From: a virus
Direction: 5' to 3' (one strand)
Length of the DNA: 29,370 bases
IMG/VR virus record: IMGVR_UViG_3300021197_000371
Span: 1 to 29,370 of that record
Position 1 is the first letter of the stretch; each line of letters begins with the position of its first letter. The translations under genes were made by a program, and so were the position numbers. Positions 1,099 to 28,586 of the stretch are shown piece by piece. The notes under the pieces are model-generated. The model made no database searches and was not told the DNA's origin. It saw nothing but the letters and a program-made list of their open reading frames with translations.

Positions 1099-3198
1099 AT
1101 GGAAGAAGAATTTGAAGACATGATGATGGATATGGAGGAAACTTCATCCATTAAAGATGTTAAAAAGGAAGAATACTCAGACCCTGCTGCAGGACAGATT
1201 GTTCATTTTGTACGAGAAAAATTTTCTAAGGCTGAAACTGCAAGAGAGCTTGACGAACAGCGTTGGATTCAAGCTTATCGTAACTATCGTGGTATCTATG
1301 GTTCTGATGTTCAATTCACTTCTACAGAAAAATCAAAAGTTTTTGTTAAGGTTACTAAAACAAAAGTACTAGCTGCTTATGGTCAAATTGCAGAGGTGTT
1401 ATTTGGTGGTAATAGATTTCCTATTAGTATTGATCCCACCGTTCTCCCAGACGGTGTAGAGGAAACAGTTAGTTTTGAAACAAATGCAGAACAACGTAAG
1501 GCGGCTGAAGGATTGCCTGACTTACTTCCTGGTGAAACTTATCCAGAGCTTCTTGAACGTGCAGCTGGACTTAAGGCTAGTCTAACACCAGTAGAAGACA
1601 TCTTAAAACCAGGCCCAGCTAAAACTCCTACTTCTCCACAGTTTCATCCTGCAGATGTAGCTGCAAAGAAGATGGAAAAGAAAATTCATGATCAGTTAGA
1701 AGAGTCTCACGCCAAGAAGCATCTCCGTGCTGCGGCATTTGAAACAGCTCTATTTGGTACTGGCATTATGAAAGGTCCATTTGCTGTAGATAAAGAGTAT
1801 GCTAACTGGGACGAAGAAGGCAACTATTCACCAGTATTCAAAACTATCCCACAAACTACTTCTGTTTCCATTTGGAACTTCTACCCTGACCCAGATGCTG
1901 CTACTATGGAAGAGGCAGAGTACATTGTAGAACGTCATAAGATGTCACGCTCACAGTTACGAGCGTTAAAGAACCGTCCTTATTTCCGTGAGAATACTAT
2001 CGACAATGCTTTACGTCTTGGCGAATCCTACAACAAAGAGTGGTGGGAACATGCTATGGAAGATAACTCAGAGCAAGATCAAGCTCAACGATTTGAGGTT
2101 CTTGAGTTCTGGGGTTTTGTAGATACAGAGATTTTAGAAGAACAAGACATAGACATTCCTAGTGAATTAAAAGACTCAGAACAACTTAGTGTAAATGCAT
2201 GGATTTGTAATGGACAAGTGTTACGTTTAGTAATGAATCCGTTTACTCCTGCTTACATACCTTACTTTGCCGCACCTTATGAGATGAATCCCTACAGTAT
2301 TTTTGGTGTAGGTATTGCGGAAAACATGGATGATACTCAAACCCTTATGAACGGGTTTATGCGTATGGCAGTAGATAATGCTGCACTATCAGGTAATTTG
2401 CTGATTGAGATTGACGAGACTAACCTCGTCCCAGGGCAAGACCTCTCCGTGTATCCAGGGAAGGTGTTTCGGAGACAGGGAGGGGCACCTGGTCAAGCAA
2501 TCTTTGGCACCAAGTTTCCTAACGTATCTAATGAAAACATGCAGATGTTTGACAAAGCAAGGGTATTATCTGATGAATCAACGGGCTTCCCATCTTTCGC
2601 ACACGGACAAACTGGAGTATCAGGAGTGGGAAGGACTGCTTCTGGCATTAGTATGCTTATGTCTGCAGCTAACGGCAGTATACGAAATGTTGTCAAGAAC
2701 ATAGATGACTACTTACTAGCACCATTAGGCAAAGCATTTTTTAACTTTAATATGCAGTTTAACTTTGACTCAGATATTAAAGGTGACTTAGAAATCAAAG
2801 CTCGTGGTACTGAAAGCCTAATGGCTAATGAAGTACGTAGCCAACGACTAATGCAGTTCTTGCAAGTTGTACAAAATCCTGCACTAGCACCGTTTGCACG
2901 TATGGACTATATTGTACGTGAGATTGCTAAGTCTATGGATCTTGATCCTGATAAGGTTGGCAACAACATGGCACAAGCAGCAGTACAAGCTGAAATTCTT
3001 AAAAAGTTCCAAGAGGCTAATCCCCCTGAGCCAGAACCTGGTGTACCACCACAAGGTGGTCCTGAGGGCGCTCCAGCTGGCGCACAGGTACAGGATACTC
3101 AAGGTAGCGGGGGTGGTACCATAGGTACTGGTACAGCTCCTACACCAGGAGAACAGGGCTTCTCAGGTAACACTGGCGAACAACAACAGGTACAATGA
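1099..3198 (+). CDS. Portal protein (head-tail connector)
   Basis: Forms the dodecameric ring at the capsid vertex through which DNA enters and leaves. It is 699 aa. The N-terminus is very acidic and Met-rich (residues 1-25), followed by a mixed helical body containing WNFYPDPDA near residue 256, a hallmark-like stretch in portals of this size, and SGVGRTASGISMLMSAA at about residues 508-524, resembling the portal crown/wing region of marine podovirus portals. The last 60 residues are Pro/Gly/Gln-rich and probably disordered. The length exceeds the T7 portal (about 535 aa) and is nearer P22-sized portals. The start is supported by AAGGAT at 1088-1093, overlapping the terminase stop. The call rests on family resemblance plus position directly after terminase; no catalytic motif exists to prove it. 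Confidence 0.88.
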   Translation: MEEEFEDMMMDMEETSSIKDVKKEEYSDPAAGQIVHFVREKFSKAETARELDEQRWIQAYRNYRGIYGSDVQFTSTEKSKVFVKVTKTKVLAAYGQIAEVLFGGNRFPISIDPTVLPDGVEETVSFETNAEQRKAAEGLPDLLPGETYPELLERAAGLKASLTPVEDILKPGPAKTPTSPQFHPADVAAKKMEKKIHDQLEESHAKKHLRAAAFETALFGTGIMKGPFAVDKEYANWDEEGNYSPVFKTIPQTTSVSIWNFYPDPDAATMEEAEYIVERHKMSRSQLRALKNRPYFRENTIDNALRLGESYNKEWWEHAMEDNSEQDQAQRFEVLEFWGFVDTEILEEQDIDIPSELKDSEQLSVNAWICNGQVLRLVMNPFTPAYIPYFAAPYEMNPYSIFGVGIAENMDDTQTLMNGFMRMAVDNAALSGNLLIEIDETNLVPGQDLSVYPGKVFRRQGGAPGQAIFGTKFPNVSNENMQMFDKARVLSDESTGFPSFAHGQTGVSGVGRTASGISMLMSAANGSIRNVVKNIDDYLLAPLGKAFFNFNMQFNFDSDIKGDLEIKARGTESLMANEVRSQRLMQFLQVVQNPALAPFARMDYIVREIAKSMDLDPDKVGNNMAQAAVQAEILKKFQEANPPEPEPGVPPQGGPEGAPAGAQVQDTQGSGGGTIGTGTAPTPGEQGFSGNTGEQQQVQ

Positions 3199-3401
3199 AA
3201 CTAGTCGTGAACAATACACTAAAGCCTTTTGTAAATAACCCTGAGTTATACACTCCGTTTATCGAAGAGATTGCTGAACGGATCGCCTTTACACATGTAA
3301 CACTAGAACAGTCTAGGGAGATTGATGAGATCTATAGACTGCAAGGTGAGATACGTGCACTAAGATCACTACTAAAGTTAAGGGATAAAGTTAATGCCTG
3401 A
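3195..3401 (+). CDS. Small protein of unknown function, coupled to portal
   Basis: A 68-aa protein starting in an ATGA overlap with the portal stop and ending 8 bp inside the next gene, so all three are probably translationally coupled. The N-terminal half has a short polar strand (KLVVNNTLKPF), and the C-terminal half is a charged helix (EIDEIYRLQGEIRALRSLLKLRDK) with heptad-like hydrophobic spacing, suggesting a small coiled-coil or helical hairpin. I do not recognise a family. The position between portal and a giant virion-type protein suggests a head-assembly or packaging accessory role, but that is inference only. Confidence 0.7.
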   Translation: MKLVVNNTLKPFVNNPELYTPFIEEIAERIAFTHVTLEQSREIDEIYRLQGEIRALRSLLKLRDKVNA

Positions 3402-6400
3402 GCAGCCTATAAGACCAAAGCCTAGACCTATTTTAACTAGAAGGTTATCTGATCAGATGTCAGATATGGTTTTAGGGGAAAGTGAAACTCAAAATAACCA
3501 ACCTGTTTTATCTCCAAATATACAAAAAAGTTTAGGTGCCCCAGAAAAAGTTTCTGCAGAAAAGATAGAAAACTATGTTGAAACTGTAAATCAAACTGAA
3601 GATCCACTTCAAGCTGTTCTTTATGCTAGTATGCTTACTAGTGAAAAAGAACCTGATGAATCTGGTTACAGACCAACAGAATTAAATTTAGATGAAAATG
3701 ACGAAGAGCAAAGGAGAACTATATACTCTTTTTTTAAGAATGCTTTAGGGAGCTTAATAGGTGAAGACTATGACCCTAGAGATAAAGCTTGGTGTGCTGC
3801 TTTTGTAGATGCAACTTTAACTAAAATAGGTGCAGATAGATTAGATTCCTGGTCTAGGATAAGGGCAAATGACTACACTAAGTATGGAGTAGAAGTAGAC
3901 ATTGAAGATATTAGACCAGGTGATATTGTGATATTTGATTGGTCTAAAGATGGTAAACGAGACGGAAGAGGAGACCATGTAACTTTTTATGCTGGAGATC
4001 TAGTAGATGGTGTAACTAGTAGAACAGATAGTATTAGGGTACTTGGAGGAAATCAAGGAGATCGCCGTGCTATTATAGGTACTGATCAGTACGGCAATCC
4101 TGATCGTAATAAACAAGGTGTAGTTTCAGTTAAAAATTATAGTAAGGAGGATATTCTTGCGGTTAGAAGAATTACTAGAGATAGTAAACCTTGGGAACGA
4201 ATAAAAGATCAAAACCCTTTATTCTTCTATTCTAATAAAACAAATCCAAGTTATGGGTTTAATAAAGGTGGTGATGTAGCAGCTCAGATGGATCTTATGC
4301 TACCATCTGCTGATGATGACATTCGTCCAGAAGATTACACCCAATATAAACCTGACAACTTCACTGGTAGAAGTTTTGCAGCTGACTCCTTTCAAGAAAC
4401 TAAAGATAGGTTTATGGATGCAGGTAATATTGATGTAGACCCTGATGATCCTGCTATCTTTACCGCATATAAACGTGCTGTAGATTATCTTAAAGACACA
4501 GGACTTGCAGGTTTAGGTCTAGCTGATACTGCATTTAAATATGCTGTAGGTTCTGTAGCTCAGGTTATGCCAACAGAGCAGCTAGAAAAACGTATGGCTA
4601 GGGATCTTTACTCTCTGCCAGAAGCCTTTGGTGGAGCTGCAGGTGCTAAAAGTATAACTCAACTTGATGATGCAGCTGATGCATTTCTTGCAGGATCTAA
4701 ACAAGTAGCGCAAAAGTTAAAGACAGAGTATGACCCTACGATGGTTAGAAGCTTTGTTGGTGCTACTCCTCCTACTTACCAAGAACGTGAGACTCCTTTA
4801 TCATCCCCATTACTTTCAAAAAATTTAATGGCTACTGAAACTTATCCTAATACTGCAAGATTGTTACAACAAGAACTTGGTGATAACTTTACGTCTATTC
4901 CTGATGAAGTTTTAGACATTTATAATATGGGCCTTTTAATCTTTAGAGAGCCTGTTGTAGAGTTTGCAGAGACTTTAGATATTCCTAAAAAAGGTTTATT
5001 AGGTTCAGAGTTTTTAAACCGAGTAAAAAAGAACCCATCTATTCCAGAAACTTCTTTGCAAGAAAGTGTTATAGAACCTTCTAGAAGGTACACTAAAGAT
5101 GAGTTACTTAGAGCCTTAGGCGTAAATGCAAACACTCAAGGAACTTTTAGATCAGTTGCAAATATTTCTCCCGCAAGAATAAAACAATTTGAACAGTATC
5201 AACGACAGCGTAGAGATGCAGGTTTTGTAGGGGGAACTGAAATTGATTACTTTGATATACCTATAGATGTAACTATTGGGTATCCTGGCAAGAAATTTAA
5301 AGCTCATTCTCAACATTATCAAGACGAAACTCTAGTTCATGTTAGGGGGTCTATTATAGATAGTAGCGTTCCTTTCTCTGAATTTAACACTGGCCCTTCT
5401 GGCGAAATAGTTATTGATTCAACTAGGAAGTTTATAGCCTTTGATACCATAATTGACAATGATAACTTTTTACTTGTAGAAGAAATTCAATCTGATCTTC
5501 TTACTAAGGGTTATGTAAAACCTAAAAGTCCTTTTGACGCAGCTTTCTCTGAGGCTATTGATAAGTATAATTTTGAAAATCCTGTTAAATACCAAGAAGC
5601 TTATGGAGATATTTCTACTGACATACAAAAGATTTTTAAAGAGCTAGATGAAGAAGGGATATATTCTCCTGAACTTCCTATCCAGTTAGAACCATTTAGC
5701 TCTAACCCATTTTTTAGCCCTGAAACAGAAACTGCTTTTACTAATAAGATTTTAGATAAAGGTTACACAACCTTTGAAGAACTTAAAGACTATATTAAAA
5801 GTCAAAATACAAATTCTGAGCAGATTTGGGGTATTCTTAGTAGACTAAAACGTGAAGTTCCAGGTGTTTCTATAGTTAATGATGCGTTAGGTGGAAAAAC
5901 TTATACTAATATATCTTTAGACTTAGATGATCCTGCTTTTGATGATTTTTTAGAAACTTTTTATGAGTCTGTAAAGGGTAGTGAGATTGATCATGAAATT
6001 CATATGCATAGATATGAAGATTTTATAGATGATTATAATAGGGTAATACTAAAAAAGATAAAAGAAAAAGGCCTCAGTAAAGAATTAGACCTAAACGACT
6101 TACAAAGACTAAGAGAAAAATACGAGGGTGCTGGATCTAAAGGCACCTTAAGCGTAGGACTACCACCAATACGAAAGAATAAACAAGCTGTAGATGAGGC
6201 ACTTAAAGTTCTTATAGCTAAAGCAGCACAACAGGGTGTAGATAAGATTGTTATTCCGCCAGCAGAGCGTATAGCTATGGCTAGAGGTAGAGAGCTTAAG
6301 AAGGATAAAGGTGATAGGTTTTACAGAACTTATGTAACTGACTTAAACAAATCTTTAAAGGAACTTGAAGATAATTACCCTGTAATAGTACATAGAGATG

Positions 6401-8295
6401 TTGAGTTGCCATACCTTAAAGAGTCTGACCCTGACATTGGAGACTTTGAGGATCTTGATATGGAAGCTGCCTTACAAGCTGCAATAGATGCAGGGGATCC
6501 AGAAGCAGCCGGAGACATAGCAGAACTAATCCAAACTGATGGTAAAAGACTTGATGCTGACAACAAAGGTACAATCTTAGACATCTCAGAGTTAATTGAT
6601 AAGTACAAAATAGAACAACCAAGACAGTTTGCCGAAGGGGGCGTAGCAATGAACGAACAAATGGAAATGGCCTTTATGAACCAAGGTGGACTAAAAGACG
6701 ACGGCATGAAGCGAGACCCAGTGTCAGGTAATGAAATACCTAATGGTTCTATGGCTAAAGAGGTACGGGATGATATATCTGCTCAACTATCTGAAGGTGA
6801 GTATGTGGTACCTGCTGATGTCGTAAGATACCTTGGTGTAAAACATTTTGAAGATTTACGAGATAAAGCAAAACAGGGCTTGCAAAGCATGGAAGCTAAT
6901 GGTAGAATCGGTGGTGAGCCTGTTCCTGTTGGTGGACCACAAGCTGCCCCTATGATGCAGCAACCTCAACAAATGCAGCCACCGATGCCTCAAGCTCCTA
7001 CACCATACAGCCCACAACCTGCACCACCTCAGATGGCTATGGGTGGTGATCTATCTCCAGAAGAGATGAACGAGATCAACAGCATTATGATGGCTCAAGG
7101 TGGTATGGTTCCAGCAGACCCATATCAACAACAGCAGATGCAATATGCTCAGCCAAATATGGCTATGGGCGCAGCTGAAGGTACAGATGTAACCTCTAAC
7201 AGTTTTATGAATCCAGGTGGAGGTATAACTCCTGGGCAAGCTATAACTATGCCTACTAATTATAGTTTTGGTTTTAGTAATGAACCTCCTGGCCCAAGCT
7301 TAGTTCCCCGTAGTGTAACACTTTATGGACCTAATGGAGAACAAGAACAGTTAGTTTTACCAGCTCAACAAGCTAGATACGATGAACTGATTGGACAAGG
7401 GTATACAACAACAAATCCAACTGATGTAGAGGGAAGTACAGGTTCAACCCCCTCAGAGTTTTCTGATGACAGTGATGATCCTATTATGCCTCCAGCAACT
7501 CCAGGTGCTCCTGGGACTACCTTCACTGGCTTTAAGAACTGGGGTGCAGAGGTAGACTGGGCTGATCCAGAGTCAGTTGAAAAGTTTGTTAATCAGCAGT
7601 ACAATATGCCTGACCCTGCCTTAAGAAAAGGTGCAGGTGTAGCAGGTTTACTTGGTGCAGGTCCACTTGCTGCTGTAGGTACTATAGGTAGTTTATTCAT
7701 GGCAGGTCAAGTTTTAGATACTGTAGCTGACTTAAGAAGTTCTGTAATGATTGCTAAAGCTTATGGAAATACAGAAGGTGCAGCAATGGCCCAAGCTAAA
7801 CTTGATTTAGCTTTAAAAGGTGCTCCAAGTTACGTAACATCTATGGTTGGTGATACGCTTGCAGGTGGAACAATGCAATTTGCTGGTCATGTTAGTGGTG
7901 CTTCTGGTTTAGATGATTTACCTTCTAATATTGATGAGTGGACAAAAAATGATTTCACAAGATTTCAAAATGCTACAGGTAAGAAAGCTCCTGTTGAACC
8001 AGCGGCAGATAAACAAAAAACTACTACTCCTTCTTCTTATGACACAACCACAAAAGAACAAATACAACAAAGGCAAAGTGATCGTAGTGAAAGAAGTTCT
8101 CAAATAACTGCAGGTCAAAAAATTGCAAGTCAAGACATGTCAGGTAAATCAGATCAATATAAAACAGAAGCAGTTAAACAAGCAACAAAAGGTACAACTG
8201 AGGAAGAAAGAAAAGGTGGTGCAGAGTTAGATGCATCAATGGGTATTTCAGGCTTAAATAAAGGCGGCTTGATGAAGAAGAAACGTAAAAAATAA
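3394..8295 (+). CDS. Giant multidomain protein with N-terminal CHAP/NlpC-P60-type hydrolase
   Basis: A 1633-aa modular protein, probably virion-associated. Residues 130-260 form a cysteine amidase/peptidase domain of the TIGR02594 or CHAP type: WCAAFV with nucleophile Cys134, GRGDHVTFYAG with His195, and VLGGNQGDR with Asn220. Residues 640-965 resemble a region of phage polyvalent proteins: LVHVRGS (647-653), LLVEEIQSDLL (693-703), then a helix and strand (930-963, ending VDKIVIPPAERIAMARG). Residues 1105-1150 carry DPVSGNEIP and GEYVVPADVVRYLG, a stretch I associate with marine phage structural proteins. The rest is Pro/Gln/Met-rich, with a hydrophobic Gly/Ala segment near 1410-1435 and a basic tail KKKRKK. 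Six short GG motifs occur (about 289, 1079, 1094, 1214, 1233, 1621). A start SD (AAGGGAT) lies near 3377. The virion role is inferred. Confidence 0.8.
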   Translation: MPEQPIRPKPRPILTRRLSDQMSDMVLGESETQNNQPVLSPNIQKSLGAPEKVSAEKIENYVETVNQTEDPLQAVLYASMLTSEKEPDESGYRPTELNLDENDEEQRRTIYSFFKNALGSLIGEDYDPRDKAWCAAFVDATLTKIGADRLDSWSRIRANDYTKYGVEVDIEDIRPGDIVIFDWSKDGKRDGRGDHVTFYAGDLVDGVTSRTDSIRVLGGNQGDRRAIIGTDQYGNPDRNKQGVVSVKNYSKEDILAVRRITRDSKPWERIKDQNPLFFYSNKTNPSYGFNKGGDVAAQMDLMLPSADDDIRPEDYTQYKPDNFTGRSFAADSFQETKDRFMDAGNIDVDPDDPAIFTAYKRAVDYLKDTGLAGLGLADTAFKYAVGSVAQVMPTEQLEKRMARDLYSLPEAFGGAAGAKSITQLDDAADAFLAGSKQVAQKLKTEYDPTMVRSFVGATPPTYQERETPLSSPLLSKNLMATETYPNTARLLQQELGDNFTSIPDEVLDIYNMGLLIFREPVVEFAETLDIPKKGLLGSEFLNRVKKNPSIPETSLQESVIEPSRRYTKDELLRALGVNANTQGTFRSVANISPARIKQFEQYQRQRRDAGFVGGTEIDYFDIPIDVTIGYPGKKFKAHSQHYQDETLVHVRGSIIDSSVPFSEFNTGPSGEIVIDSTRKFIAFDTIIDNDNFLLVEEIQSDLLTKGYVKPKSPFDAAFSEAIDKYNFENPVKYQEAYGDISTDIQKIFKELDEEGIYSPELPIQLEPFSSNPFFSPETETAFTNKILDKGYTTFEELKDYIKSQNTNSEQIWGILSRLKREVPGVSIVNDALGGKTYTNISLDLDDPAFDDFLETFYESVKGSEIDHEIHMHRYEDFIDDYNRVILKKIKEKGLSKELDLNDLQRLREKYEGAGSKGTLSVGLPPIRKNKQAVDEALKVLIAKAAQQGVDKIVIPPAERIAMARGRELKKDKGDRFYRTYVTDLNKSLKELEDNYPVIVHRDVELPYLKESDPDIGDFEDLDMEAALQAAIDAGDPEAAGDIAELIQTDGKRLDADNKGTILDISELIDKYKIEQPRQFAEGGVAMNEQMEMAFMNQGGLKDDGMKRDPVSGNEIPNGSMAKEVRDDISAQLSEGEYVVPADVVRYLGVKHFEDLRDKAKQGLQSMEANGRIGGEPVPVGGPQAAPMMQQPQQMQPPMPQAPTPYSPQPAPPQMAMGGDLSPEEMNEINSIMMAQGGMVPADPYQQQQMQYAQPNMAMGAAEGTDVTSNSFMNPGGGITPGQAITMPTNYSFGFSNEPPGPSLVPRSVTLYGPNGEQEQLVLPAQQARYDELIGQGYTTTNPTDVEGSTGSTPSEFSDDSDDPIMPPATPGAPGTTFTGFKNWGAEVDWADPESVEKFVNQQYNMPDPALRKGAGVAGLLGAGPLAAVGTIGSLFMAGQVLDTVADLRSSVMIAKAYGNTEGAAMAQAKLDLALKGAPSYVTSMVGDTLAGGTMQFAGHVSGASGLDDLPSNIDEWTKNDFTRFQNATGKKAPVEPAADKQKTTTPSSYDTTTKEQIQQRQSDRSERSSQITAGQKIASQDMSGKSDQYKTEAVKQATKGTTEEERKGGAELDASMGISGLNKGGLMKKKRKK

Positions 8296-13316: not shown

Positions 13317-15308
13317 ATGCCCACTGCTTGGCAGACATTTCCAGTAGAATTTCGTGGGGGTCTGATTACTAATGTCAGTCCACTACAGCAAGGTATTAAT
13401 GCTGTAGGATCTGCGAGAGAGCTACGTAACTTTGAGCCATCTATTGAAGGTGGCTACAGACGTATACAAGGTTACACAAAGTATAACTCTACTGCTGTAC
13501 CTTCTTATGGTGCAACTAAAGTACAAGGTGGTAGTCAATCTGGTACTACCCTAAACATGGCTAGTATCTTTGTTACTGCTGCAGTGGGCGATAAGTTTAC
13601 TATAGCAGGAGATGCCACAGAGTATACTATATCTAATATTGCAGTTGGATCGTCAGGCTATAACGACACAAATAAAACACTCACTGCTACAATTACACCT
13701 GCCCTTGCAGCTACACCAGCAGATCAAGCAGCTATTACTTTTGTAAATAATACTAATTTAATTCAAGGTGTAGGATATTTTAACTCAGAAGTATTTGCTT
13801 ATCGTGATGGTGCTATTTGGAGCAATGACACAGCAGGTGCATGGTCACAAATTAATGTACCTAACTACGGAACTGTTTTAGTAAATGGTGGAAGTCAGAC
13901 AGGTGGTACAGTTGCTATAGATGGTTTAACGGGTGTACCGTATATTGGAGACACCTTTACTATTGCTGGCATTGCTAAAGTATATACAGTTACAGCAGAG
14001 CCTACAGTCACTAGCGGTGGAGCTACAGTAACTATTACACCTAACTTAGCAAGTAGCCCTGCGGATGATGCAGCTATTACTTTCCTAGCTACAGATAGAG
14101 GCAGTAATAACAAGCTACGGTATAGCCGTTACAATATTACTGGTACACCTACTATTATGTTTGTAGATGGTGCTAACTATCCAGCTAAGTACGATGGTAC
14201 AACTTTTACTACACTCAATGAAGCGCCTACAGATTTAATTGCTGCACAGTTTGTAGTAAACTTTAAGAATCAACTATTTTTTGGTAAAGATAATTTAATA
14301 GTATTTAGTGCGCCTTATACAGATACTGACTTTACTGCTGCTGCAGGTGCAGGAACAATTAATGTTGGAGAAGATCTAACAGGACTTATTGTTTATCGTG
14401 ATCAGCTTATTATCTTTACTCGTCGCAGAATATTTAGATTAACTGGCGATACTATTGCAAACTTTGTGCTTGCACCTATTACACTAGACATTGGTTGTGT
14501 CAGTGAAGACACTATTCAGGAAATAGGTGGTGACGTAATGTTTATGGCACCTGATGGTCTTAGGCTACTAAGTGCTACAGATCGTATTGGTGACTTTGGA
14601 TTATCTACTGCATCTAAGCCAATTCAAGATGTAATGACTAGCTTTACTTCTGGAAATACAAGTTTTGCTTCTTGTGTTATTCGTGGCAAAAGTCAGTATA
14701 GAGTTTTTGGATATGCAGCTAGTGTTTCTAAAACATCTGCTAGTGGTATCTTAGGTACACAGTTTGCTGATCAATCTGCTCAAGGAATGGCATGGGCACG
14801 ACTACGTGGAATTAAAGCTTATGTAGTTGATAGCTACTATGACGATAATATTGAAGAGCTTGTATCTTTTGCATTTAATGATGGCATAGTGTATCAAATG
14901 GAACAAGGTAGTTCTTTTGATGGTGATAATATTAGAGCTACTTTTAGTACTCCACACTTTGTAATTAATGATCCAAGAATACGTAAAACATTGTATAAAC
15001 TAACTACTTACGTAGATCCACGAGGGTCTGTAACTGGTCAAGCAGCATTGAAGTTAGACTTTGACCAACCTAATTCAATTGAACCAACACCAGTTACCTT
15101 TAGTAATGGTGCAACATCAACAGCATCTTTTTATGGAGATGCAATATTTGGAACAGCTACCTTTGGTGGTAAATTAGTAAATGTATTTACCAATCAAATA
15201 GTAGGCGCAGGAAGATCTGTCTCATTACAGTACGTATTTGACAGCACAGATCCAGAGTTTTCGCTGGATGCTTTAGCATTAGAATTTGCTACTAACGACA
15301 GACAATAA
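13317..15308 (+). CDS. Tail nozzle (tail tubular protein B-like)
   Basis: A 663-aa beta-propeller-type tail protein that forms the tip of the short tail. The N-terminus FRGGLITNVSPLQQGINAVGSARELRNFEP (residues 12-41) followed by a YRRIQGYTKY strand is typical of podovirus nozzles, which start with a GG(L/I)-x-x-x-SP-x-Q and a LRN-x-x-P motif. Residues 69-142 and 189-256 are two copies of an inserted module, each with GGSQ-(S/T)-G, GD-(K/T)-FTIAG, an ITP-x-L-A turn and a PAD-x-AAITF ending. Near the C-terminus, FYGDAIFGTATFGG (605-618) echoes the N-terminus of the 177-aa protein at 11569. It has close spacing to the adaptor upstream and fibre downstream. Confidence 0.85.
   Translation: MPTAWQTFPVEFRGGLITNVSPLQQGINAVGSARELRNFEPSIEGGYRRIQGYTKYNSTAVPSYGATKVQGGSQSGTTLNMASIFVTAAVGDKFTIAGDATEYTISNIAVGSSGYNDTNKTLTATITPALAATPADQAAITFVNNTNLIQGVGYFNSEVFAYRDGAIWSNDTAGAWSQINVPNYGTVLVNGGSQTGGTVAIDGLTGVPYIGDTFTIAGIAKVYTVTAEPTVTSGGATVTITPNLASSPADDAAITFLATDRGSNNKLRYSRYNITGTPTIMFVDGANYPAKYDGTTFTTLNEAPTDLIAAQFVVNFKNQLFFGKDNLIVFSAPYTDTDFTAAAGAGTINVGEDLTGLIVYRDQLIIFTRRRIFRLTGDTIANFVLAPITLDIGCVSEDTIQEIGGDVMFMAPDGLRLLSATDRIGDFGLSTASKPIQDVMTSFTSGNTSFASCVIRGKSQYRVFGYAASVSKTSASGILGTQFADQSAQGMAWARLRGIKAYVVDSYYDDNIEELVSFAFNDGIVYQMEQGSSFDGDNIRATFSTPHFVINDPRIRKTLYKLTTYVDPRGSVTGQAALKLDFDQPNSIEPTPVTFSNGATSTASFYGDAIFGTATFGGKLVNVFTNQIVGAGRSVSLQYVFDSTDPEFSLDALALEFATNDRQ
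13521..14084 (+). repeat. Duplicated nozzle module (protein-level repeat)
   Basis: Two homologous modules encoded at about 13521-13742 and 13881-14084, 120 codons apart. Both have GGSQ-x-G at the start, a GD-x-FTIAG strand, TITP-x-LA, and PAD-x-AAITF at the end. Sequence divergence between copies is large, so the duplication is old. Confidence 0.7.
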
Positions 15309-19476: not shown

Positions 19477-22400
19477 ATGGCGTATAGTATGATTTCAAAT
19501 AACGATGGCACGTATAGTATGCCTTCTTCTGCACAACAAAAAGAACAAAGAGAAAGTGGTGAATACGCTGCTAATGCAGCTAAAAATACAGCTAATAATT
19601 CTTCTAGTAATAGTGGAAGAAGTGGTTCTAGTTCTAATAGAAGCTCTACTACTCAAACTACTGGCTATTCTGTAGCACAAGATTATGATTGGGAAGCCCT
19701 AACAAAAGACCCAGGAAGGTGGACTTGGTTTGAGAATCGTTACAACCCAAATAAACCATATATGCAAGCTGCTCACTGGAAGAATACAGTTACTGGTGAG
19801 AAGAAGCTAACTGAGTTCCGTGATATTCGTAATGATAAAGGTAAGATACAAAAAAGTTTATTGCACCCTTACGGTAAAGCTTTTGGTGCAGATCTTAATA
19901 AACCCCACACAGAGTGGAAAGCACGTAAAAAGAAGTACGACACTTTTAGTTCTTATTTAGATGAAGCAGGTAAAGATTCAGTAAGTTTTGCAGACTACCT
20001 AAAAGGTCAGCAAGCTTATGATTCTGAGATGAAAATCTATAATGATGATTTAGCAGCTAAAGCAGCAGCGGCTGAAAGAGCTGCAGAAGAAGCAGCTAAA
20101 GAAGCGGCAGCGAGGGCTAAAAAACTTGAAGAAGAAGCTGCTGCTGAAGCTGTTAGAAAAGCCGCAGAGGCTGAAAGAATTAGACTAGAGGAAGAGTTAG
20201 CAGCAGCTCAGGCTGAAGCTACAAGGCTTCGCCTTAAAGCTGAACAAGAGGCTCAAGAGGAAGCTGAACGAATTAGATTAGAAGAAGAAGCTGAGCTTGA
20301 GCGTATTAGGTTAGCTGAAGAAGAAGCTGAAAAAGCTCGTTTAGCAGAAGAAGAAAGATTACGACTTGAGGCTGAAGCAGCTAAAAAAGCTCGCATAGAG
20401 GCAGCTCAAGGAGTGGCTCAAAACCGTATAGATTCAAGAGGTTCTGCAGATTATACTTCAGCTTTTACTGGTGAAGGTGCTTCTGTATATAACCCCCCTG
20501 GTTTTGAAGTAGGTAAAGCAGCACCAATGGTAGGCCCAACAAGTGTTGCTTCTGACTCAGCTAATCTCACCTCCGAAGTTTATTCTCCTAATTATATTCA
20601 AGGTGCAATACCCCAAACGGTAGAGCTACCTTCAGTCTCACCAGCAGGAATGAGTAGCACAGCTATGTATGAAAATGATTTGGGTCAACAAATACCCGTA
20701 ACAATTGTGGATGGAAGACCTGTAACTTATGTACCCCCAGGATTTACTGCAATGGCAGAAGGTGGGTCTGTAGGCTATGCTGAAGGTGGTGACGTAGATG
20801 CACAATATCAACTAGCTACGAAATTTCTTGGTTATAAAGGGCCAAAAACTGAGGCTGGTTTAAATGATTTTGCAAAAGCTAATCCTGCAGTAGGTGCTCG
20901 TTTAGGTATGTATCGTCAGGCTATGTCCCAAGGTGGCATGGCAAGAGGTTTTAATGACGGTGGTTATAGTTATAAAGAAGACACCTTGCCGATGTTTCAA
21001 AATACTTTGAGACAAACTATGCAACCTATGCAATCTCAAGTGTCTTATATGACACCTACAAAAAATCAATTTATATCTCCAACAGCGGGTCAAGTGTATG
21101 GTCAAGCACCTACAACTCGTGCGGCCACTGTTGGTAGAACTTATACAGCACAGACACCAACCTACGTACCAGCTTCAACTTATCAAGCAGGTAGCATAAG
21201 CCCTTTTGTACAAGACTATACGCAACGTATGGATGGTGTCCAAGGGGAGCTATCTGAGGACGCTCAAGTTGATGCAGCACAAGGTAGTTCTAGCTTAAAT
21301 ATCAATGCGGCTCAAGGTGAAGCTACAATGATGGAGAATCCTGTAACTAGAGAGATACAGGATGGAGAACTTATAAGTGGTGTAGCAGACGCTGAGAAAG
21401 CCGCTAAGTTTGCAGAACAAATTGAAGCAGCAAGTGCAAGCCCAAGTAAAAAGGCTACTGTACAAGGCCAGTTAGAAGGCCTTATGCAACAGTTTGAGGG
21501 TGGTGAAACACCTGCTTGGGCCGCTGGTGCTATGAGATCTGCTATGGGGCAAATGGCTGCTAGAGGCTTAGGTGCTTCGTCTATGGCAGGTCAAGCACTT
21601 GTTCAGTCAGCTATGGAGTCAGCATTACCAGTAGCTATGGCAGATGCTCAAACTCAGTCACAATTTGAACAACAGAACTTGTCAAACCGTCAACAACGTG
21701 CTATGCTTGCAGCACAACAACGTGCTCAGTTTATTGGTCAAGAGTTCGATCAAGCTTTCCAAGCTCGTGTTATGAACTCTGCCCGTATTAATGACATAGC
21801 TAATATGAACTTTACAGCAGAGCAAAACATTGCTTTGGAAAACTCTCGTGCTGCTAATAGTATGAACTTAGCAAACCTGAGTAATCGTCAAGCTGGAGTT
21901 ATGGCTGAAGCTGCAGCAATTGCCAACATGGATATGGCTAACCTTGACAACAGACAACAAGCTGCTGTACAAAACGCTCAAAATTTCTTAGCTATGGATA
22001 TGTCTAACTTAGATAGGGCGCAGCAGACAACTATATTTAAGGCACAGCAAAATATTCAAGCTTTGTTTACAGATCAAGCTGCTGAGAATGCTGCAGCACA
22101 GTTTAATGCTACAAGTGAAAATCAAACCAAACAGTTTTTTTCTTCACTAGCTTCACAAACTTCTCAGTTTAATTCTTCACAAAGAAATGCTACTGAGCAA
22201 TTTAATGTAAACTCGATAAACTCTATTCGTCAATTTAACTCTAACTTGCAACAGCAGAGAGATACTTTTAATGCCTCGAATAGTTTAGTTGTAGCTCAAG
22301 CTAATGCTCAGTGGAGGCAGAACATTGCAACGTTAAATACTGCTGCACAGAACCAAAGTAATTCAGATTTTGCCTCTGCTATAAATGATCTGACAGCCTC

Positions 22401-22605
22401 TAACATGGATAAAATTTGGCAGACAGAACGAGATCTTATGGATATGAACTATAAGTCTGTTGAAAATGCTAAAGATCGTGCAATGCAAATGTTATTAGGT
22501 GAGCAAAGCTTAGAAGCTCTTAGAGAAAAAATTGGTTATGAAGAAGATAAATCTAAATCCGAATTGTTTTTTAGATTTTTATTCGGAAATGACTTTAAAC
22601 TTTAA
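19477..22605 (+). CDS. Large helical virion protein (internal/ejection type)
   Basis: A 1042-aa protein. Order: Ser/Asn-rich low complexity (residues 25-62); a mixed domain with aromatic residues (68-185); an uninterrupted Ala/Glu/Arg helix of about 120 residues (189-310); a Pro-rich linker; four GG motifs (426-438 and 483-496); then a C-terminal half of about 480 residues, mostly helix, with MAARGLGASSMAGQALVQSA (about 687-706), QRAQFIGQEFDQAFQARV and repeated NLDNRQQAAVQNAQNFLAMD-like units. The latter half strongly recalls a virion structural protein found in T4-like cyanophages and other marine phages. An AAAGGA SD precedes the ATG. The gene order before lysozyme and ejection-type genes suggests a protein delivered with DNA, but a tail-surface role cannot be excluded. 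Confidence 0.75.
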   Translation: MAYSMISNNDGTYSMPSSAQQKEQRESGEYAANAAKNTANNSSSNSGRSGSSSNRSSTTQTTGYSVAQDYDWEALTKDPGRWTWFENRYNPNKPYMQAAHWKNTVTGEKKLTEFRDIRNDKGKIQKSLLHPYGKAFGADLNKPHTEWKARKKKYDTFSSYLDEAGKDSVSFADYLKGQQAYDSEMKIYNDDLAAKAAAAERAAEEAAKEAAARAKKLEEEAAAEAVRKAAEAERIRLEEELAAAQAEATRLRLKAEQEAQEEAERIRLEEEAELERIRLAEEEAEKARLAEEERLRLEAEAAKKARIEAAQGVAQNRIDSRGSADYTSAFTGEGASVYNPPGFEVGKAAPMVGPTSVASDSANLTSEVYSPNYIQGAIPQTVELPSVSPAGMSSTAMYENDLGQQIPVTIVDGRPVTYVPPGFTAMAEGGSVGYAEGGDVDAQYQLATKFLGYKGPKTEAGLNDFAKANPAVGARLGMYRQAMSQGGMARGFNDGGYSYKEDTLPMFQNTLRQTMQPMQSQVSYMTPTKNQFISPTAGQVYGQAPTTRAATVGRTYTAQTPTYVPASTYQAGSISPFVQDYTQRMDGVQGELSEDAQVDAAQGSSSLNINAAQGEATMMENPVTREIQDGELISGVADAEKAAKFAEQIEAASASPSKKATVQGQLEGLMQQFEGGETPAWAAGAMRSAMGQMAARGLGASSMAGQALVQSAMESALPVAMADAQTQSQFEQQNLSNRQQRAMLAAQQRAQFIGQEFDQAFQARVMNSARINDIANMNFTAEQNIALENSRAANSMNLANLSNRQAGVMAEAAAIANMDMANLDNRQQAAVQNAQNFLAMDMSNLDRAQQTTIFKAQQNIQALFTDQAAENAAAQFNATSENQTKQFFSSLASQTSQFNSSQRNATEQFNVNSINSIRQFNSNLQQQRDTFNASNSLVVAQANAQWRQNIATLNTAAQNQSNSDFASAINDLTASNMDKIWQTERDLMDMNYKSVENAKDRAMQMLLGEQSLEALREKIGYEEDKSKSELFFRFLFGNDFKL

Positions 22606-24893: not shown

Positions 24894-27800
24894 ATGACTA
24901 ACATACCTGAGGGGTTTACTTTAGATAAGCCTACAAATATAAGTGTACCAGAAGGTTTTACTCTAACTGACCCAAATGTTTTAGTTGAACCTGAGAAGGT
25001 TGAACCTGCGTTACCTGAGGCTGGTACATACACTCAAAATGACTTAGCAGAGAATGACTATGCCTACTCTATAGCTGAAGGCTATATGCGTGATAGGTTT
25101 GGTGATGAAGAAGTAGATGGTAAATCTAGAGAGGATGTTATTGATAGCTTCTTGAACAATCGTCGTGGTGTTGTATCAGGTAATACTATGCGTGGTCTAG
25201 CTGAGATAGACTACATCAACGACATACAAGATGATGAAGCTAAGAAGACTAGAGCTGCTGCTGCATATAAACTGTACGAGAATATGGCTGGCATCTTTAG
25301 TAAAGAAACAACAGTAGGTGAAAAAGCTGAAGGTGTGATGGATTTTACTAGGAGTGTGCTTCTTGATCCAGCAAACCTCCTTGGAGGATTTATAGGTAAG
25401 GCTGCAGCTAATGGTTCTATTCGTGTAGGTACATCAGTTGCAAAGAAGGCTGCTCTGCAGTCTATGCAAAAAGAAGGCACAAAAAAGACAGCTGAAAAAG
25501 TTGGTACCAAGTTGTTTACAGATGGAATGCAAGCTTCACGTACAGCTACTAAGGCTAAGATAGGTTCTTATGTACAGCAGACTTTAGGTAAGACTGCTGC
25601 TCAACGTCTAGCTACCAAGAAAGCTATTACAGAAATAGGTATTACCACTGGTATAGATGCTGCAATAGGTACAGGTATGGAATACTTGTATCAAGATGGT
25701 CTAGTAAATGTAGATGCACAGGAAGATATTAACTACCTAGCTGTGGGCATAGCTGCTGCTGGTGGTATTATTATGGGTGGTGTTCAAGCTGGCTTAATTG
25801 CAAGACGTGGTATGTCAGGTACAGCAGTGCCTACAATGGAATTACCTACACCAGATGCTACAGGCTTTTTGTCAGAAGCTTCTCAAGCTATAGATAAATA
25901 TATAAAGCAAGACAAAGTAGAAATTGGTAGGGACTGGAAGACAAAACTAGAAGGCGGAGCAGAGTTATCTAAAGGTAGCAAAGACTTTAGCCATGATTTC
26001 TTTAAAGTTCTTATACTGGGACATAACGAAGGTGATGAAGTTATCTTTAAGGGTATGACTCAGACTGCCTTTGAAAGAGGGTTTGTTTGGGCTAAACGTT
26101 TTGAGGATGATAAGTTTACCAACTGGATGGCTGATATTATTGCCGATGTTAGCGACAAAGAAGCTCAAGGGTTTATAAAAGCTATTGAAAAAGCTACTGG
26201 CAACAAGATTAAAGTACGTGACAATGATGGCAACATCATCCCAAGATCTCAAGTTACTGGTAAAGATATAGGTGACATACTATCATACAAGATGTCTGAG
26301 GCTGGTGCGACTCTTGGTCTTATGGGTCAGTCAGCTAAACAGCTAGGTCTTTCTCTTACTGATATGGAACTAAAGGATCTATATCAGTCTGCCTTAGATG
26401 CTGGATTTATTCGTGGTGATGCGACTGTTAAAACAATAGAAGTTGGCGACAGGGTATCTTCAGTAGGTACAAAAAGAATTGGTGAAGTAAAGGAGATAGA
26501 TGGAGATCTGGCAACAGTAGTCTATCGTAGCAGGAAAGGCAAAGTTACTACTAAGAAGTTACGGCTGTCTGTTCTAAAGGATACTGAGCCTAAGGCTGCT
26601 AAAGATTTTGACCCAACTGTAGCTGCCATGACCTTAGAAGCTTTCGAGAAAAACCAAGATCGTTTAATTAGATTACTTGTTGCTCATCCTTCTACAAGTG
26701 CACTTAATGTAGTTGGTTGGGGTACTAATGCTGCCTTGCAAAGTACTACTGATATGTCTATAGCATTAGTGAATGCTGGATATGGTACACTACAAAAGTT
26801 AGCTGGTCAGGTAGAAAAAGGTGCTGAAACTCAGAGGTTAGCTAAGATTCTTATGGAATCTAATATGCAAAGGGTCAAGTTCCTACTCGATCCTGACATG
26901 ACTTATACAGCTTTTGAATCTGCACTGCAAAGAAACTCTGAAGCACTTCAAAGATTAAACAGTGTACTTCCTGGTGGTGTAGAAGGTACCAATACCTTAC
27001 TAACAGGCGGTAAGTTTAGCCCAGGTATGAAACTACTTGGGTTAAAAACAGATAACTATATTGATATGGTGCAGAAACTTACCTTAGTACAAGCACAGGA
27101 TGGATTTACTAAGTCGCAAGAATTTTTATTTCAGATGGATAAGAAGCTTAGAGTTGCTACAGGTAAAGGTTGGAACGAATTTTATAGGTCTGAAAAGATA
27201 GGTGATATGTCTCTTCAAAAATATATGGGCAGTAGGGAGTATCGTACTATAGAAGCTAATGCTGTTGAGGATACCTTGGAGGCAATCTTTTCTAAATCTT
27301 ATAAGGGTGAAGGTTTAGTAGGTACAATTGCAGGGGGTATAGAAAACGCTAGGAAGCTTCCTGTTATAGGTATGGCAGTTCCCTTTGGTAGATTCTTTAA
27401 TGCCACAGTAGCATTCACAGGAAAGAATGCTCCTGGAGTAAACATGATTGCAAAGGGTATGGGTTTCTACGACAACATGACTATGAAGGAAGCATTTGCT
27501 AGAACTACGATATCTGCTGGTGCTCTTTGGGTAGTATCTAATGAAGAAATTGATAACGTTAAAAAAGGTTTACCTTTATATGCAACAGCTACTGCAGGTG
27601 GAGAAGTTATAAACCAACAGTTTGACTTTCCTATATCTGCATACAGAGCTGGGGGTAGAATCTGGGCGTTGATGCGGATGGGTGAAAAGCAACAAGCTAT
27701 GGAAGCTTTTAAGCAGTTTAGGCTGGACTTTGGTTTAAGTGGTTTATTAAGAAACCTAGATAAAACTCAAAGGGATACACTAGAGTCTATTACGCTTATG

Positions 27801-28586
27801 ATTGACCCTGAAAGACGTGATGTTGCTGGTGCTTTAAATATAGCTGGCAACACCTTAGCTAGTCAGTTTGTAAATCCTATATTCAGGGCTGCAGAACCTT
27901 TGAACATTGTCGCTGGTCTTGCTAGAGGTGAAGATGCTGCACCTATAGATAGAAAACAAAACAACAAGCTAGTAAATAATGCCTTTCGTTACATAGACAA
28001 TATCATACCTTTGTTTATGGGAGAACCTTTAGCCGAAGCTAGAAAGACTGCTGCAGGTGGTACAGTCGATATACAATCTACTAAGATGTTAGGTATTAGA
28101 AACATCAGGCTTACTGATACTCAACGTGTTATGAATAGGGTAGGTATACCAGACTATAAACTTGATACTATGATTGGAAACAGTAAGAAAGTTAAAGACC
28201 AAGCACCTCAAGCTGGTAATGCTTTGAGTGGAATCTTTTTTGATATAATAGAGTCAGAGTCAAGCTTGCTGCTAGAGTCCAGTTGGTTTGATAAGCTAAC
28301 TCAAGAAGAAAAGTTACAACATTGGAAGGGTGATGTTGTACCCAGAGCAAAAGATTTAGCTAAGACTTTCTTGCGTATGCAATACTCTGGACCTGAAGAT
28401 GTAACTGCGCTACAGTACGACATAACTAGCAAGTTTCCTAAGTCAGGTGTTCAGAAAGGTCTAAAGGAATTAAACTTGGGAGACCTAGAAGACTTAGAGC
28501 CGAACGAACTCTTCATACTTCAACGGTATCTAGAAACTGAAGAGTCCTTACGTAGCTTACGTATCTTTAAAAAGCAAACAGAATAA
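24894..28586 (+). CDS. Large ejection-type internal virion protein
   Basis: A 1230-aa protein. Residues 3-13 and 17-27 are a direct repeat, IPEGFTLDKP / VPEGFTLTDP, a type of leader found at the start of phage virion proteins. Then long helical regions follow with Gly/Ala-rich hydrophobic segments (about 250-305, including LAVGIAAAGGIIMGGVQAGL) that could enter membranes, a small beta barrel-like stretch (517-562, VGDRVSSVGTKRIGEV...RKGKVTTKKLR) resembling SH3/KOW folds, and a helical C-terminal half. The length and place match the last and largest ejection protein of podoviruses (T7 gp16 is about 1318 aa), but no transglycosylase motif is seen at the N-terminus. AAGGGG is the SD. The gene ends 5 bp before a terminator. 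Confidence 0.72.
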   Translation: MTNIPEGFTLDKPTNISVPEGFTLTDPNVLVEPEKVEPALPEAGTYTQNDLAENDYAYSIAEGYMRDRFGDEEVDGKSREDVIDSFLNNRRGVVSGNTMRGLAEIDYINDIQDDEAKKTRAAAAYKLYENMAGIFSKETTVGEKAEGVMDFTRSVLLDPANLLGGFIGKAAANGSIRVGTSVAKKAALQSMQKEGTKKTAEKVGTKLFTDGMQASRTATKAKIGSYVQQTLGKTAAQRLATKKAITEIGITTGIDAAIGTGMEYLYQDGLVNVDAQEDINYLAVGIAAAGGIIMGGVQAGLIARRGMSGTAVPTMELPTPDATGFLSEASQAIDKYIKQDKVEIGRDWKTKLEGGAELSKGSKDFSHDFFKVLILGHNEGDEVIFKGMTQTAFERGFVWAKRFEDDKFTNWMADIIADVSDKEAQGFIKAIEKATGNKIKVRDNDGNIIPRSQVTGKDIGDILSYKMSEAGATLGLMGQSAKQLGLSLTDMELKDLYQSALDAGFIRGDATVKTIEVGDRVSSVGTKRIGEVKEIDGDLATVVYRSRKGKVTTKKLRLSVLKDTEPKAAKDFDPTVAAMTLEAFEKNQDRLIRLLVAHPSTSALNVVGWGTNAALQSTTDMSIALVNAGYGTLQKLAGQVEKGAETQRLAKILMESNMQRVKFLLDPDMTYTAFESALQRNSEALQRLNSVLPGGVEGTNTLLTGGKFSPGMKLLGLKTDNYIDMVQKLTLVQAQDGFTKSQEFLFQMDKKLRVATGKGWNEFYRSEKIGDMSLQKYMGSREYRTIEANAVEDTLEAIFSKSYKGEGLVGTIAGGIENARKLPVIGMAVPFGRFFNATVAFTGKNAPGVNMIAKGMGFYDNMTMKEAFARTTISAGALWVVSNEEIDNVKKGLPLYATATAGGEVINQQFDFPISAYRAGGRIWALMRMGEKQQAMEAFKQFRLDFGLSGLLRNLDKTQRDTLESITLMIDPERRDVAGALNIAGNTLASQFVNPIFRAAEPLNIVAGLARGEDAAPIDRKQNNKLVNNAFRYIDNIIPLFMGEPLAEARKTAAGGTVDIQSTKMLGIRNIRLTDTQRVMNRVGIPDYKLDTMIGNSKKVKDQAPQAGNALSGIFFDIIESESSLLLESSWFDKLTQEEKLQHWKGDVVPRAKDLAKTFLRMQYSGPEDVTALQYDITSKFPKSGVQKGLKELNLGDLEDLEPNELFILQRYLETEESLRSLRIFKKQTE

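What the first reader, a model, noticed from the sequence alone, without database searches (positions are those of the whole stretch)
3394..8295. 4.9-kb modular gene between portal and scaffold, with hydrolase and polyvalent-type regions
In T7-like phages the ejection proteins lie downstream of the nozzle. Here a 1633-aa protein is placed between portal and scaffold, coupled to both portal and a 68-aa gene. It joins an N-terminal Cys-His-Asn amidase domain (Cys134, His195, Asn220) to a region with VEEIQSDLL (695-703), similar to domains described in polyvalent proteins that are injected with phage DNA, and a marine-phage GEYVVPADVVRYLG segment. This could be a single virion cargo that opens the wall and then acts in the cytoplasm.
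Basis: partly seen in the sequence, partly recalled or inferred. Interest (0 to 1): 0.68.

Follow-up and report, generated by a model that had tools for sequence, protein, structure and literature searches.

The report
Modular phage head protein carrying enzymes
This marine virus gene encodes a large protein, always sitting between the head portal and scaffold genes in its virus group, that joins a constant carrier segment to swappable enzyme modules (here a cell-wall cutter and an acetyltransferase-like domain), so it probably rides in the virus head and is delivered into the bacterium on infection.

Summary
An intact 1633-aa ORF (3394-8295) lies between portal, a 68-aa gene and scaffold in an HMO-2011-type marine podovirus. 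Residues 100-265 are a TIGR02594/CHAP-type peptidase with Cys134/His195/Asn220 conserved in relatives. The VEEIQSDLL region belongs to a very large, Pfam-less phage family (motif EEIQSDWHQ in at least 120 viral contigs). An AlphaFold2 model of a compact relative (pLDDT 85) matches almost only GNAT acetyltransferases. Residues 1079-1180 (GEYVVPADVV) are a near-invariant core found in more than 570 viral loci, in the same slot: scaffold downstream in 96/96 testable loci, portal upstream in 90/93. Everything N-terminal to the core is interchangeable: nothing, CHAP, SleB hydrolase, GNAT-like, methyltransferase and others. Most proteins end in a 'GG...lysine-rich' tail (87/105, against 11/486 control ORFs). 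Best reading: a portal-proximal minor head protein carrying optional effectors into the host, analogous in position and logic to MuF/polyvalent proteins but with an undescribed carrier core. Virion packaging, cleavage and acetylation are inferred, not shown.

The parts
3394..8295 (+). 1633-aa modular protein, whole ORF
   Evidence: same slot in 96/96 (scaffold downstream) and 90/93 (portal upstream) testable relatives
3195..3401 (+). 68-aa gene between portal and the large ORF, overlapping both; conserved partner in the same place
   Evidence: found upstream in 91 of 93 testable relatives, usually overlapping by 4-16 nt
3691..4188 (+). CHAP/TIGR02594-type cysteine peptidase or amidase domain (residues about 100-265; Cys134, His195, Asn220)
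4255..4305 (+). inter-module linker GFNKGGDVAAQMDLMLP (residues 288-304); stand-alone relatives start here
   Evidence: homology breakpoints at 278/298; L003-L009 start at this point
5101..6621 (+). EEIQSD module, GNAT-like fold (residues about 570-1076; conserved His641, His649, Arg651, Glu697, Gln699, Ser700, Asp701, Tyr980), with a long family-specific insert between the EEIQSD and GLPPI blocks
6625..6690 (+). inter-module linker QFAEGGVAMNEQMEMAFMNQGG (residues 1078-1099); gene fission point in relatives
6628..6936 (+). constant core with DPVSGN...EVRDDI.A.LSEGEYVVPADVVRYLG (residues 1079-1181)
7648..7704 (+). Gly/Ala-rich hydrophobic segment (residues 1419-1437), possible membrane-inserting helix
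   Evidence: weak: mean best 19-residue hydropathy 1.28 against 1.00 in shuffles
8251..8292 (+). C-terminal tail GLNKGGLMKKKRKK (residues 1620-1633)
   Evidence: GG plus K/R-rich tail in 87/105 3'-complete relatives, 11/486 control ORFs

Best explanation
It is the head-cargo (carrier) protein of HMO-2011-type podoviruses. The constant part, the GEYVVPADVV core plus a C-terminal region of usually 400-500 aa ending in a GG...lysine-rich tail, is most likely incorporated in the head next to the portal during assembly (inferred from the invariant portal - 68 aa - carrier - scaffold - capsid order). During infection the protein leaves through the portal with the DNA (inferred). In this phage it brings two enzyme modules: a CHAP/TIGR02594-type cysteine peptidase that would cut peptidoglycan during entry, and a GNAT-like domain that would acylate a host or defence target early in infection (fold supported by prediction, activity inferred). 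Modules are exchanged between phages at GG linkers; in some phages they are separate genes just upstream of the core gene.
For: Gene slot conserved; core near-invariant while N-termini vary from 0 to about 1600 aa; exchange of CHAP, SleB (PF07486 E=6e-16), methyltransferase, GNAT-like, LPD23 and DUF6782 metallopeptidase matches, plus a weak ART-PolyVal match; gene split at the linker with the core in the next gene; catalytic triad conserved; GNAT-like fold; best viral structure match annotated as a large polyvalent protein; isolate relatives encode a separate endolysin or phage lysozyme; purifying selection; shared tail.
Against: No virion proteomics was found for this group, so packaging is inferred. 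The window's CHAP scores are below the curated cut-offs (20.1 vs 26 bits; 43.6 vs 70.55). The marine branch lacks the [QR]xxG acetyl-CoA loop seen in 110/121 canonical members (0/36), so it may not be an active acyltransferase. Separate large proteins downstream in this genome could be the ejection machinery. 21 of 101 relatives have almost no N-terminal cargo.
Confidence: 0.6

Rival explanations
1. Assembly factor: the core is a portal/scaffold-associated morphogenesis protein that is not ejected; the fused enzymes act late, in the producing cell or the prohead.
For: Position between portal and scaffold; core-only versions of 377-450 aa exist, so the essential function needs no enzyme.
Against: Wall hydrolases and polyvalent-type domains make little sense as assembly factors; isolate relatives encode a separate endolysin or lysozyme.
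Confidence: 0.2
2. Late lysis enzyme fused to a structural protein: the CHAP domain is the endolysin of the phage.
For: A homologous domain is a solo gene at a lysis-like position in Autographiviridae phage CRP-403 (gp39); PHROG endolysin matches.
Against: Most relatives lack it; isolates have a separate endolysin or phage lysozyme gene.
Confidence: 0.07
3. Polyprotein: the GG linkers are cleavage sites and the modules are released as separate proteins after delivery or during head maturation.
For: GG motifs lie at module borders; homology breakpoints are enriched near them (22% vs 8% expected); some modules are separate genes ending right at the motif.
Against: No protease is implicated; the same motif is at the protein's own C-terminus, so it may be a binding tag; the linkers may simply be recombination points; breakpoint pairs are not independent.
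Confidence: 0.1

Closest known systems
Phage polyvalent proteins (Iyer et al. 2017, PMC5512222)
   Same: Large multidomain phage proteins with unrelated enzymatic domains on one chain, predicted to be packaged and injected; relatives here match LPD23, DUF6782 metallopeptidase and weakly ART-PolyVal.
   Different: A constant GEYVVPADVV core with an invariant gene slot and C-terminal tail, which I did not find described; the EEIQSD domain gave no credible Pfam match in 36 members.
MuF / SPP1 gp7 minor head proteins with fused effectors
   Same: Same slot (portal - X - scaffold - capsid) and same logic of a structural domain fused to variable enzymes (established knowledge; PMC5512222).
   Different: No match to the MuF domain in Pfam scans; in MuF proteins effectors are typically C-terminal (my recollection), here they are N-terminal.
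T7 gp16-type ejection proteins (PMC8954989)
   Same: Peptidoglycan hydrolase at the N-terminus of a large podoviral protein; the hydrolase can swap between proteins.
   Different: Gene lies between portal and scaffold; no sequence match seen; carries a GNAT-like domain.
GNAT acetyltransferases
   Same: Predicted fold of the EEIQSD module; conserved Glu697 and Tyr980 in plausible places.
   Different: No sequence match to any Pfam GNAT family; long insert; the marine branch lacks the usual acetyl-CoA loop.
TIGR02594 / CHAP amidases
   Same: Cys-His-Asn triad and sequence family.
   Different: Part of a much larger protein that is probably not a lysis enzyme; window member is below curated cut-offs.

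Membership tests
CHAP/TIGR02594 peptidoglycan hydrolase | Catalytic Cys-His-Asn/Glu triad | tested here: met
   Cys and His invariant, Asn in 12 of 13 with Glu in the other
CHAP/TIGR02594 peptidoglycan hydrolase | Profile match above curated cut-off | tested here: inconclusive
   Window 43.6 bits vs 70.55 (E=3.4e-11); all 13 relatives match, best 8.7e-30; Pfam CHAP 20.1 vs 26
CHAP/TIGR02594 peptidoglycan hydrolase | Cleaves peptidoglycan | not testable with these tools
   needs assay
GNAT superfamily | GNAT fold | tested here: met
   AF2 model of compact relative L171, pLDDT 84.6, pTM 0.84; nearly all top PDB rows are GNAT-type acyltransferases, Foldseek best E 2.5e-3, VIA Z up to 8.7. Modelled on a relative, not on the window protein itself, whose own model was poor
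GNAT superfamily | Acetyl-CoA loop [QR]xxGx[GA] | tested here: not met
   Full pattern in 23/121 canonical and 0/36 marine members; [QR]xxG in 110/121 canonical. Hence 'GNAT-like fold', not filed as an active GNAT
GNAT superfamily | Acyltransferase activity | not testable with these tools
   needs assay
Polyvalent proteins | Several disparate enzymatic domains on one polypeptide | tested here: met
   CHAP plus GNAT-like plus core in one intact ORF
Polyvalent proteins | Encoded in phages with portal-terminase packaging, beside head genes | tested here: met
Polyvalent proteins | Packaged in virion and injected | not testable with these tools
   no proteomics found
MuF | MuF domain | tested here: inconclusive
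   No match in Pfam scans of window and relatives; remote structural similarity not tested
T7 gp16-type ejection protein | Membrane-spanning segments | tested here: inconclusive
   Gly/Ala-rich hydrophobic segment, only mildly above shuffles

The most novel reading that the evidence does not exclude
A previously undescribed virion delivery module: in one of the most abundant marine phage groups a constant portal-proximal carrier (GEYVVPADVV core, GG/lysine tail) brings interchangeable enzymes into the host, including members of a very large, unclassified GNAT-like family (EEIQSD) used by many phages.
Probability: 0.45. Interest if true: 0.78.

Novelty: new variant of a known kind. Interest (0 to 1): 0.62.

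Why it matters
HMO-2011-type phages are reported among the most abundant known marine virus groups (PMC6918029), yet this gene is annotated only as hypothetical. A fixed carrier with swappable payloads would show how such phages equip virions for entry and early take-over, and would give a handle (the core and tail) for finding unknown effectors by gene position. The EEIQSD family, present in at least 120 viral contigs and without a Pfam entry that I could find, would gain its first fold assignment.

Tried and rejected
AF2 with 12 close relatives gave a useless model (pLDDT 43); a deeper alignment on compact relative L171 worked. Tblastn of the EEIQSD module against phages found nothing, a diverged relative only one weak hit, and two genome-contig scans confirmed no relatives, so spread in prophages is not established. 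Pfam on five large EEIQSDWHQ ORFs gave nothing, so co-occurrence with named polyvalent domains could not be shown that way. PDB sequence search with the EEIQSD profiles gave nothing credible. Sigma70_r1_1 and RpoD matches to residues 788-831 are weak, below cut-off and lie in the variable insert: rejected as chance. Literature search for the motif found nothing relevant. A weak similarity of the core to a 362-aa protein in Rhizobium phage RHph_TM3_14A (E about 2e-3; 4e-5 to 4e-3 the other way), beside an annotated N-acyltransferase gene, is suggestive only.

Full report
What is there. The window is a 29,370-base viral record whose genes run terminase large subunit, portal, 68-aa gene, the 1633-aa ORF, scaffold-position protein, major capsid protein, tail genes and large unknown proteins. 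Closest named relatives are HMO-2011-type podoviruses.

N-terminal domain. The full protein gives only weak hits (CHAP E=9e-4 below cut-off), but the isolated region matches TIGR02594 (E=3.4e-11), phrog_1259 baseplate hub/tail lysozyme (E=1e-14) and PDB 7cfl (profile E=6e-6). In an alignment of 13 relatives Cys and His are invariant and Asn is in 12, Glu in one. A solo version lies at a lysis-like position in roseophage CRP-403. Isolate relatives have another gene annotated as endolysin or phage lysozyme, which argues against a lysis role here.

Central domain. Marine relatives down to 26-35% identity share HYxxxTLxHxRGS, EEIQSDLL, PPIxKNxxxV, GVDKIVIPP and GDxFYRTYV. No Pfam family matched the 36 members scanned, apart from two single chance-level hits. 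From the sequence pattern I noted a GNAT-like arrangement before the model was available. The AlphaFold2 model of compact relative L171 (285 aa, 124 sequences) has pLDDT 84.6 and pTM 0.84; all but one of the top 50 Foldseek PDB rows are acyltransferases or acyl-synthases of GNAT-type fold (best E 2.5e-3, prob 0.89; the exception is DNase I), VIA Z reaches 8.7 with GNAT-like entries throughout, and the best viral match is annotated as a large polyvalent protein (E=1.5e-6). The E-values are modest and each Z alone would be borderline; it is the uniformity of the list that supports the fold. Conserved residues map to window His641, His649, Arg651, Glu697, Gln699, Ser700, Asp701, Tyr980. The usual acetyl-CoA loop is incomplete in canonical members and missing in the marine branch, so activity is open.

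Core and gene slot. In fetched loci the core ORF has scaffold downstream in 96/96, capsid in 74/74, portal upstream in 90/93 and the 68-aa gene upstream in 91/93 testable cases. The part before the core ranges from about 0 to 1600 aa. Of 101 5'-complete proteins, 21 have almost none; CHAP, EEIQSD and L5-gp82-like modules occur in 19 each, alone or combined, SleB in 2, methyltransferase in 3, and 28 have other N-termini (the sample is biased by the query and partly redundant). Other relatives match LPD23, DUF6782 and weakly ART-PolyVal.

Linkers and tail. Modules meet at GG motifs (GFNKGGDVAAQM, QFAEGGVAMNEQMEMAF). Several phages have the upstream module as a separate gene that ends at or just after this motif, followed by the core gene (L159, L179, L183-L188; CRP-738 is also split into two genes). 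Homology breakpoints are near GG motifs in 65 of 297 cases against 8% expected, with non-independent pairs. The C-terminus is a GG plus lysine-rich tail in 87 of 105 complete proteins and 11 of 486 control ORFs. Its function is unknown; a capsid, DNA or portal binding tag is my guess.

Mechanism. Shown: an intact, selected, modular protein with conserved slot, hydrolase triad and, by prediction on a relative, a GNAT-like fold. Inferred: incorporation near the portal, exit with DNA, wall cleavage, acylation of a host target. The MuF/SPP1 gp7 position and the T7 gp16 hydrolase give precedents (established knowledge; PMC5512222, PMC8954989). No proteomic data for this group were found.

Verdict. 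A real and interesting feature, best filed as a new variant of polyvalent/MuF-like effector carriers, with a carrier core and a GNAT-like family that I could not find described.

Noticed in passing
L200-L318: The EEIQSDWHQ motif is very widely repeated in viral contigs, yet I found no Pfam entry for the domain; the five large ORFs tested (1577-2474 aa) show no Pfam domain at all.
   Followed up: partly
L049, L051, L054, L159: Some relatives end instead in a cysteine-containing C-terminus (such as CCFIMLEARYGNGTMDEVVRRYRDEHM), in several cases followed by a small methyltransferase gene.
   Followed up: no
L058 1972-3505: Rhizobium phage RHph_TM3_14A has an annotated N-acyltransferase gene directly before a protein with a GEFVIPEDVV segment similar to the core, followed by large proteins.
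   Followed up: partly
window 19477-22605 and 24894-28586: Two large ORFs (1042 and 1230 aa) without any PHROG match; candidates for separate ejection proteins.
   Followed up: no
window 13317-15308: 663-aa protein matching phrog_5107 (amidase, E=2e-45) and partly an internal virion protein family; a second possible wall-acting virion protein.
   Followed up: no
L044, L050, L072: A domain weakly matching Mycobacterium phage L5 gp82 (PF25735) is as common before the core as the GNAT-like module in the sampled loci.
   Followed up: partly
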